This document shows positions 45,253 to 49,741 of a stretch of DNA of 64,000 bases, piece after piece. Within the stretch, counting starts at the first letter, position 1; the number at the start of each line of letters is the position of its first letter. The notes beneath the pieces were generated by a model, which made no database searches, was not told the origin of the DNA, and was given only the letters and a program-made list of their open reading frames with translations. Origin of the DNA: Candidatus Saccharimonadota bacterium (GTDB taxonomy: Bacteria; Patescibacteriota; Saccharimonadia; Saccharimonadales; Saccharimonadaceae); assembly GCA_017531585.1 (NCBI GenBank), contig JAFXKT010000002.1:382203-446202 (forward strand). The letters are read 5' to 3'. Made by a program: the position numbers and the translations under genes.

Positions 45253-45267
45253 TGGGCGGTATAGGAT
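45253..45267 (-). repeat. Copy of the tRNA-Val 3' end
   Basis: 15 bp identical to 45423-45437, the T-loop/acceptor end of tRNA-Val, in the same orientation and 170 bp downstream of it. It has the look of an attachment-site duplication. Confidence 0.65.
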
Positions 45268-45419
45268 ACGTCCTTTTGCTCCGCAAAAGGACATCGTCGG
45301 GCGTCGCCTCTTATTTGAAGAATAAAATTGTCTAGATAGGTTTTTTCTTCTTGTGAAGCGCTGTTATTGACAGAGCGAGCAAGAAAAAATGCCTAGATAG
45401 GCAATTTTAACTTCAAATA
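45268..45419 (-). other. Element between tRNA-Val and its 3'-end copy
   Basis: From the tRNA outward: a TGCC/GGCA terminator, an imperfect ~107-nt inverted repeat centred on the 24-bp repeat at 45355-45378, a GAGGCGACGCCC segment (45299-45310) and a 10-bp GTCCTTTTGC / GCAAAAGGAC hairpin next to the 3'-end copy. The 24-mer, the 12-mer and the hairpin position recur at the tRNA-Leu locus. Confidence 0.55.
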
Positions 45420-45496
45420 TGGTGGGCGGTATAGGATTCGAACCTATGACCTCTTCTACGTCAAAGAAACGCTCTAGCCAACTGAGCTAACCGCCC
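45420..45496 (-). tRNA. tRNA-Val (GAC)
   Basis: 77 nt. Acceptor GGGCGGT / ACCGCCC, anticodon arm TTTCT-TTGACGT-AGAAG with GAC, T-arm around GGTTCGAATCC, encoded CCA. Confidence 0.96.
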
Positions 45497-49399: not shown

Positions 49400-49423
49400 G
49401 AAGCGCTGTTATTGACAGAGCGA
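49400..49423. repeat. 24-bp repeat shared with the tRNA-Val locus
   Basis: Identical over 24 bp to 45355-45378 and itself an imperfect hairpin (GC-CTGT / ACAG-GC). In both places it lies just beyond a TTGCC/GGCAA terminator on the 3' side of a tRNA-type end. Confidence 0.75.
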
Positions 49424-49451
49424 AAATAAAAAATTGCCCAAATAGGCAATT
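49424..49451 (-). terminator. Terminator beyond the tRNA-Leu 3'-end copy
   Basis: ATTGCC / GGCAAT stem, then TTTTTTATTTT on the minus strand; similar in sequence to the terminator after tRNA-Val. Confidence 0.65.
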
Positions 49452-49465
49452 CTAAATCGAATTAA

Positions 49466-49612
49466 TGGTGCGCCCGACTAGACAGCTGGCCAAATAAATT
49501 TGGCCAACATTGCGGGGCGTCGCCTCGGAAAATCCGAAGCGCCCGCGCTTCTCTGTTTTCTCTCGGCTCCTACCGCAACCGAACTACGTTCTCGTCTAGT
49601 CTGGGGCAGCCA
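49466..49612 (-). ncRNA. Candidate structured RNA/element ending in a tRNA-Leu 3'-end copy
   Basis: Nearly 150 nt with nested complementarity: GACTAGAC / GTCTAGTC closing stem (49594-49601 with 49476-49483), TTGCGG / CCGCAA (49573-49578 with 49510-49515), an 8-bp TGGCCAAA / TTTGGCCA hairpin (49487-49506) and a CTTCGG / CCGAGG hairpin between. On the minus strand it ends ...GTCTAGTCGGGCGCACCA, 18 nt identical to the end of tRNA-Leu including CCA, and a terminator follows. I do not recognise RNase P, SRP, tmRNA or 6S RNA in it. Strand and transcription are inferred; the fold is nearly symmetric, so the plus strand is possible. Confidence 0.45.
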
Positions 49613-49650
49613 AGAATAAAAATAAGACCCGTCGGGTCTTCTTTTTATTC
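49613..49650 (-). terminator. tRNA-Leu terminator
   Basis: AAGACCC-GAC-GGGTCTT stem extended by AT pairs, with an ATTTTTATTC tail on the minus strand. Confidence 0.8.
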
Positions 49651-49651
49651 T

Positions 49652-49741
49652 TGGTGCGCCCGACTAGACTCGAACTAGCACAGCTCTAAAATGGCCACTA
49701 CCACCTCAAGGTAGCGTGTCTACCAATTCCACCACGGGCGC
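49652..49741 (-). tRNA. tRNA-Leu (GAG)
   Basis: 90 nt, class II with a long variable arm (GTGGCCATTTTAGAGCTGT region). Acceptor GCGCCCG / CGGGCGC, anticodon arm CTACC-TTGAGGT-GGTAG with GAG, encoded CCA. Confidence 0.95.

What the first reader, a model, noticed from the sequence alone, without database searches (positions are those of the whole stretch)
49400..49741. tRNA-Leu followed by an 18-bp copy of its 3' end joined to a foldable RNA-like element
Bases 49652-49669 recur exactly at 49466-49483, 186 bp away. The intervening 130-150 nt form a closing stem with the copied tRNA sequence (GACTAGAC / GTCTAGTC) and three inner stems, so on the minus strand the RNA would end in the tRNA's own CCA end and is followed by a terminator. 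An RNA that borrows the 3' end of a neighbouring tRNA is unusual; it could be an integrated element, a tRNA mimic or a decoy for CCA-end enzymes.
Basis: partly seen in the sequence, partly recalled or inferred. Interest (0 to 1): 0.8.

Follow-up and report, generated by a model that had tools for sequence, protein, structure and literature searches.

The report
tRNA-end mobile units in Saccharibacteria
Next to this bacterial tRNA gene sits one copy of an undescribed family of tiny, folded DNA units that each carry an exact copy of the end of the tRNA gene beside them, and that appear to use that copied end as the docking site where mobile DNA, including restriction-enzyme islands, plugs into the chromosome.

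Summary
Bases 49466-49483 repeat the last 18 nt of tRNA-Leu(GAG) exactly. The stretch between is a structured unit (A1). A model of its core hits 34 of 45 genomes of the genus and 171 of 394 of the family. The copy matches the neighbouring tRNA better than every other tRNA in 89 of 106 units, over 21 tRNA types. The core covaries (15 of 21 pairs). Relatives at the same locus lack the unit, and the native flank then starts at the tRNA CCA end. At that site another relative carries two tandem restriction-modification islands with large serine recombinases, bounded by 13-nt copies of the tRNA end. Recombinase reading frames end inside the 18-nt block. A second core type, A2, flanks cargo. I conclude that these are non-autonomous attachment units for tRNA-3'-end mobile DNA, probably moved by serine recombinases. 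Whether the conserved fold works as single-stranded DNA or RNA is open. The tRNA-mimic reading is possible, but no promoter supports it.

The parts
49652..49741 (-). tRNA-Leu(GAG), target gene
   Evidence: ARAGORN; Rfam tRNA 50.9 bits; promoter-like site upstream 49778-49751
49652..49669 (-). last 18 nt of the tRNA (positions 59-76), attachment block
   Evidence: exact repeat; block boundary 58/59 in 85 copies
49613..49651 (-). palindromic terminator that belongs to the unit
   Evidence: terminator-like 49640-49624; absent from empty sites, which keep a different native terminator
49594..49612 (-). anti-arm: imperfect reverse complement of the tRNA 3' end (P1 5' strand)
   Evidence: sequence; family test
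49581..49591 (-). P2 hairpin GAAC-GTA-GTTC (GNA triloop)
   Evidence: loop survey
49514..49584 (-). conserved core A1 with two tandem G.A motifs and hairpin P4 (model R1 hit, 89.8 bits)
   Evidence: covariation
49484..49507 (-). P3 hairpin TTGGCCAAAT-TTAT-TTGGCCAG
   Evidence: P3 survey
49466..49483 (-). exact 18-nt copy of the tRNA 3' end (P1 3' strand)
49430..49465 (-). second terminator-like hairpin after the copy; it continues into a family-B-like palindrome
   Evidence: comparison with family B loci
45420..45496 (-). tRNA-Val(GAC), second target in the window
45253..45310 (-). truncated A1 unit ending in a 15-nt copy (45253-45267) of the tRNA-Val 3' end, behind a family-B palindrome (45311-45419)
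   Evidence: intact counterpart L069

Best explanation
The feature is one unit of an undescribed family of roughly 165-190 bp non-autonomous mobile units that dock between the CCA end of a tRNA gene and that gene's native terminator. A unit is: its own terminator palindrome, an inverted partial copy of the tRNA 3' end, a folded core, and a direct 18-nt copy of tRNA positions 59-76. Because it keeps the tRNA intact and brings a terminator, insertion is harmless to the tRNA. The copied end is itself an attachment site, so units stack in tandem and larger cargo islands insert beside them. I infer that a trans-acting recombinase moves them, most likely the large serine recombinases encoded by tRNA-3'-end islands in the same genus. 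I also infer that the selected form is a folded single strand in which the inverted copy pairs with the direct copy and so rebuilds a double-stranded piece of the attachment block. SHOWN: family, own-tRNA match, empty sites, tandem units, cargo between units, covariation, serine-recombinase islands at the same site. INFERRED: which enzyme acts, that the units move today, and whether the folded strand is DNA or RNA.
For: Own-tRNA copy: 57 of 106 units 18/18 and 16 of 106 17/18; own better than all other tRNAs in 89 of 106. The block is exactly positions 59-76; identity falls to 0.20 and 0.08 at 58 and 57 (85 copies). Empty sites: the native flank after the copy in L203 aligns immediately at the tRNA CCA in L216 (105/117), L210 (93/117) and L219 (56/63), with no unit. 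Tandem units: L095, L088, L089, L117. The same tRNA-Leu(GAG) site in G169 holds two islands with serine recombinases (Resolvase 2.3e-24, Zn_ribbon_recom) and R-M genes (DpnII 1.8e-109), bounded by GTCRGGCGCACCA and ending at the same kind of native flank. Recombinase C-termini overlap the tRNA 3' end by 12-18 nt or abut a unit's copy (L046, L309, L342). A2 units flank cargo in L340, L341, L342. Covariation score 0.268 against 0.107 shuffled, 0 of 500. P1 inner 7 bp paired 87% with the own copy against 64% across tRNA types; all 7 paired 49 of 98 against 2%.
Against: No excision, circle or transposition was observed. No recombinase lies in or beside the window unit. No unit was found on phage, plasmid or viral contigs. 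Serine integrase sites are usually described as sharing only a short core (recalled), so 18 nt of identity is long. The mover cannot easily explain how one core type comes to carry the ends of different tRNAs. One unit clearly carries another tRNA's end: L041 sits at tRNA-Lys but carries a tRNA-Glu end; in 17 of 106 units the own tRNA is not strictly best. G.U and A.C cells are equal in P1 (30:29), which gives no sign of RNA pairing there. DNA energy parameters did not fit the comparative fold better than RNA.
Confidence: 0.62

Rival explanations
1. Structured RNA gene: a tRNA-like RNA whose acceptor-like helix and CCA end imitate the neighbouring tRNA, made by read-through and trimmed by tRNA-processing enzymes, acting as a mimic or regulator of that tRNA.
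For: Strong covariation on the tRNA-sense strand; G.U exceeds A.C 34:16 in the core and 5:0 in P3; four-way fold ending in CCA; tandem G.A motifs invariant in 98-101 of 101 cores.
Against: A terminator stands between the tRNA promoter and the unit, with no promoter-like site in between. Patchy presence and empty sites. Identity extends over the outer 11 nt, where pairing with the anti-arm is weak. GNRA or UNCG loops in 1 of 234 P2-P4 hairpins against 12 of 74 terminators. No Rfam match.
Confidence: 0.17
2. Passive scars: left-over attachment ends of serine-recombinase islands that lost their cargo, without function of their own.
For: Recombinase remnants and cargo lie directly next to unit copies; truncated units exist.
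Against: Scars do not conserve a covarying 72-nt core with invariant G.A motifs over 101 distinct sequences; units carry their own terminator and a matching anti-arm; G169 islands are bounded by bare 13-nt copies without A1/A2 cores.
Confidence: 0.13
3. Retroelement-like origin: an 18-nt copy of tRNA positions 59-76 is what reverse transcription of a tRNA end stopping at position 58 gives, as in retroviral primer-binding sites (recalled).
For: Exact 58/59 boundary in 85 copies.
Against: No reverse transcriptase (PF00078) in the own genome and in only 7 of 45 genus genomes, including G109, G161 and G068, which have no A1 hit. The boundary is equally explained by the recombinase frame ending in the same block.
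Confidence: 0.03

Closest known systems
Genomic islands integrated at tRNA genes (as in the Islander database)
   Same: Intact tRNA on one side, displaced copy of its 3' end on the other, empty sites in relatives; the Islander abstract (PMC4383910, start seen in the search listing) describes exactly this regenerated target and displaced fragment.
   Different: The Islander abstract names tyrosine integrases. Here the unit has no gene, is under 200 bp, and carries an inverted tRNA copy and a covarying fold. The recombinases found at the same sites are large serine recombinases, and the one tyrosine recombinase of G000 is single-copy, as in most genomes of the genus.
Miniature non-autonomous elements (MITEs)
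   Same: Short, gene-less, multi-copy, flanked by a repeated target sequence.
   Different: No conventional terminal inverted repeats were seen; one defined target class (tRNA 3' ends); a conserved internal fold.
attC cassette sites and CTX-phage attP (folded single-strand recombination sites; recalled, not tested)
   Same: A strand that folds so that its own arms rebuild a recombination site; sites that terminate cargo cassettes.
   Different: Target is a tRNA 3' end, arms copy the target tRNA, no integron integrase was looked for.
Casposons (recalled; starts of abstracts of PMC4046053 and PMC6614799 listed)
   Same: Insertion near tRNA 3' ends with a duplicated target.
   Different: No cas1, no polymerase, no terminal inverted repeats.

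Membership tests
tRNA-gene integrative element | Intact tRNA plus displaced copy of its 3' end at the far side | tested here: met
   89 of 106 units; window
tRNA-gene integrative element | Relatives with an uninterrupted site | tested here: met
   L210, L216, L219 against L203
tRNA-gene integrative element | Encodes its own integrase | tested here: not met
   no ORF of 80 aa or more in the 186-bp unit; integrases only in neighbouring islands of relatives
tRNA-gene integrative element | Excision and integration by a recombinase | not testable with these tools
   needs experiment or read data
MITE | Terminal inverted repeats at both element ends | tested here: inconclusive
   an inverted copy of the tRNA end lies inside the unit, not at its left end
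Casposon | Cas1-type integrase and polymerase genes | tested here: not met
   unit holds no ORF of that size
tRNA, tmRNA or Rfam RNA family | Match to a covariance model or tRNA finder over the unit | tested here: not met
Integron cassette (attC) | attC core boxes and a cognate IntI | not tested
   no IntI search was made
LTR-type retroelement | Reverse transcriptase in the genome | tested here: not met
   PF00078: 0 in G000, 7 of 45 in genus

The most novel reading that the evidence does not exclude
A re-addressable mobile unit: a folded single strand carries the end of its target tRNA gene in both orientations, so that in single-stranded form the two arms pair and rebuild the attachment site that a recombinase needs. 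The address has been swapped between some 20 tRNA genes while the core stayed the same, so almost any tRNA gene can become a docking port for defence islands.
Probability: 0.33. Interest if true: 0.92.

Novelty: new variant of a known kind. Interest (0 to 1): 0.78.

Why it matters
It adds a gene-free, fold-conserved class of mobile unit to the tRNA-targeting elements, in a phylum of reduced-genome symbionts whose means of gene gain are little known. It marks tRNA 3' ends as docking ports where units, restriction-modification islands and other cargo accumulate, and points to large serine recombinases as candidate enzymes. The exact match between each unit's arms and its neighbouring tRNA makes a concrete question testable: how can one element carry many different target addresses?

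Tried and rejected
Rfam, gathering and lax: only the tRNA itself; the microRNA-like hits are far below their gathering scores.

Tyrosine recombinase as mover: PF00589 hits 39 of 45 genomes, nearly always one Xer-like copy, one in G000 ('Xer-like' is my reading of its size and single-copy presence). It cannot be excluded but is less well linked than the serine recombinases. Reverse transcriptase as mover: rejected as a resident helper.

Clustering of cores by host genome (gene conversion or host-specific adaptation): the nearest neighbour lies in the same genome no more often than shuffled labels give (0.028 against 0.021). Among other genomes the nearest neighbour shares the tRNA type in 52% against 9%. 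So lineages are mostly tRNA-specific, with switches (L105/L107; L041).

The first P1 register was wrong by two bases and was redone. The first CM input alignments were misaligned and not used. The right flank of L041 was no help. The relaxed viral pattern gave 23 contigs that look like coding sequence by eye, with no significant model hit. DNA-versus-RNA pairing probabilities slightly favour RNA, against my DNA reading, and do not discriminate. Papers: searches found no description of this family; only passages of PMC4686876 were read, other papers were seen as listings with abstract starts.

Full report
WHERE IT IS. The window lies in G000, a 1.01-Mb genome in 6 contigs. Relatives are Candidatus Saccharibacteria: all 55 stretches found by a core pattern in the genome collection carry that name except one called only 'bacterium'. 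Two contigs of the close relative G094 have the same lengths as records of one such isolate.

THE OBSERVATION. The 18-nt repeat, the closing stem and the terminator are real. Chance does not give an exact 18-mer: 0.02 matches are expected even at three mismatches.

IT IS A FAMILY. Searching the own genome with the element gave further copies beside tRNA-Tyr and tRNA-Gly(TCC) and remnants beside tRNA-Leu(CAA) and (TAA). Each full copy carried the end of its own neighbour, not that of tRNA-Leu(GAG). A 72-position model R1 of the core hits 34 of 45 genomes of the genus at E<=0.1, 171 of 394 of the family at E<=0.01, in 13 of 61 genera, and 66 of 294 of the class at E<=0.001, all but one in the same family. 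Hits outside the two main genera are mostly weak.

THE OWN-TRNA RULE. From 125 model hits in 118 loci and the window I dropped the two weakest and analysed 123. Of these, 107 have a tRNA gene of the same orientation within 300 nt upstream; the other 16 have none called or a far one, ten of them at contig ends. After removing one duplicate, 106 remain, beside 21 tRNA types. The last 18 nt of the own tRNA are found after the core with 18/18 identity in 57, 17/18 in 16, mean 16.1 against 10.5 for other tRNAs, and the own tRNA is strictly best in 89 of 106. The block runs from position 59 to 76; positions 58 and 57 match in only 20% and 8%. The anti-arm also tracks the own tRNA: mean score 24.0 against 14.5, strictly best in 50 of 106. 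Its inner seven pairs with the copy form in 87% against 64% across tRNA types (98 units parsed).

ANATOMY. Reading on the tRNA strand: tRNA; unit terminator; anti-arm; P2; core; P3; 18-nt copy; native terminator. In the core, two tandem G.A steps flank a three-pair helix, G-GA-GCC-GA-G facing C-GA-GGC-GA-C, and are invariant in 98-101 of 101 distinct sequences, while the pairs between them change together. On 101 distinct rows (100 of the 119 sources were given to that call, 62), 15 of 21 pairs show changes on both sides, covariation score 0.268 against 0.107 in shuffles and 0.04-0.08 in slid versions. That alignment was fitted to the structure, so it leans towards it; I judge the size of the effect to be beyond that bias.

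RNA OR SINGLE-STRANDED DNA. For RNA: G.U exceeds A.C 34:16 in the core and 5:0 in P3; G.T is also the milder mismatch in DNA (recalled). Neutral: 30:29 in P1. For DNA: P2 loops are GNA triloops in 61 of 87 and P3 loops GNA or GNYA in 33 of 66, whereas GNRA occurs once among 234 P2, P3 and P4 loops and UNCG never; in the terminators of the same loci GNRA occurs 11 times and UNCG once in 74. DNA mini-hairpins with GNA or GNNA loops are described as extraordinarily stable (PMC4686876, passages). Many copies are related, so these counts are not independent. Energy models did not separate the two and slightly favoured RNA. No promoter-like site precedes the unit, so an RNA would need read-through of a terminator. 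I lean to single-stranded DNA at about 55:45.

IT INSERTS. At the tRNA-Leu(GAG) locus, recognised by the neighbouring binding-protein gene (44 of 45 genomes), 30 loci were fetched and 26 show the tRNA. A1 follows directly in the window genome and G094; one relative (L204) is masked there. In G094 the sequence after the copy matches the sequence directly after the tRNA in G152 (105/117), G153 (93/117) and G177 (56/63), which have no unit. G157 has a different palindromic element (family B) between the tRNA and a short copy of its end, then the same flank (62/69). Units stack: exact 182-nt tandem copies in L095, diverged ones in L088, L089 and L117. tRNA-Lys in G144 carries a unit armed for tRNA-Glu(CTC), whereas the orthologous locus of G153 (94% identical upstream) carries an A2 unit armed for tRNA-Lys.

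A SECOND CORE. In the own genome, tRNA-Arg(TCG), Ser(CGA), Gln(TTG), Gln(CTG) and Glu(CTC) carry units with another, shorter core, A2, in the same arrangement. Of 38 tRNA genes examined there (43 found), 12 bear A1, A2 or remnants by my count over. A strict A2 pattern occurs in 23 of 246 family genomes, all in the own genus, and its hairpin varies in compensated fashion by eye.

CARGO AND RECOMBINASES. One own-genome A2 unit (L308) lay about 6 kb from tRNA-Lys. Fetching the interval showed an AAA ATPase, a fused C5/N6 methyltransferase and an HNH nuclease between tRNA-Lys and the unit, with the same terminator after both tRNA ends. In G136 two A2 units with identical cores flank about 4 kb with a Fic protein, a Macro-domain protein and a recombinase remnant; in G154 they flank an ABC transporter. 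In G169 the tRNA-Leu(GAG) site itself holds two tandem islands of about 6.7 kb. One has a complete 528-aa large serine recombinase and a DpnII-type R-M system, the other a second recombinase and an Eco57I-like methylase. Each is bounded by GTCRGGCGCACCA, and the last copy is followed by a native flank like that of the empty relatives. Recombinase C-termini run into the tRNA end (gap -12 or -18 nt in L211, L287, L295, L298, L299) or end at a unit's copy (L046, L309, L342). So units and serine-recombinase islands share one address.

HOW IT PROBABLY WORKS. Shown: units and islands use the tRNA 3' end as a common insertion point, keep the tRNA intact and can be layered. Inferred: island recombinases act on units in trans. 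Inferred with less confidence: the inverted arm exists so that a single strand can rebuild part of the double-stranded block, which would explain why it tracks the tRNA although only the direct copy is needed in duplex DNA. What re-addresses a unit to another tRNA is unexplained.

VERDICT. Real, new as a family as far as the held libraries and my ten paper searches show, and best filed as a new variant of tRNA-gene integrative elements; the folded, re-addressable aspect may deserve more.

Noticed in passing
window 45253-45419 (minus): Behind tRNA-Val(GAC) a family-B palindrome is followed by a truncated A1 unit and a 15-nt copy of the tRNA-Val end; the intact counterpart is L069 in G171.
   Followed up: partly
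L206, L209, L213, L218, L220, L221, L224 and others after tRNA-Leu(GAG): A second kind of small element (family B): a ~110-130 nt long palindrome with an embedded terminator, found after many tRNAs, sometimes followed by a copy of the tRNA end.
   Followed up: partly
L222, L224: A ~60-bp minimal repeat (terminator plus short copy of the tRNA end) between tRNA-Leu(GAG) and the next element.
   Followed up: no
L340 (own genome, downstream of tRNA-Lys(CTT)): Restriction-modification island with a fused C5-cytosine and N6/N4 methyltransferase of 592 aa, an HNH nuclease and an AAA ATPase, without a recombinase gene among its listed ORFs.
   Followed up: partly
L340 and L341, last ~90 bp before the A2 unit: Two islands with unrelated cargo share a similar ~90-bp end that finishes in CCCCTCACCA.
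   Followed up: no
L348 209-1795 and L298 near 1577: Large serine recombinase genes (one complete, one remnant) whose last codons are the reverse complement of the tRNA 3' end, so the gene end is rebuilt by the target.
   Followed up: partly
L273 (tRNA-Gly(CCC)) and G270:C6:71932-72075: Units that appear to hold two cores one after the other.
   Followed up: no
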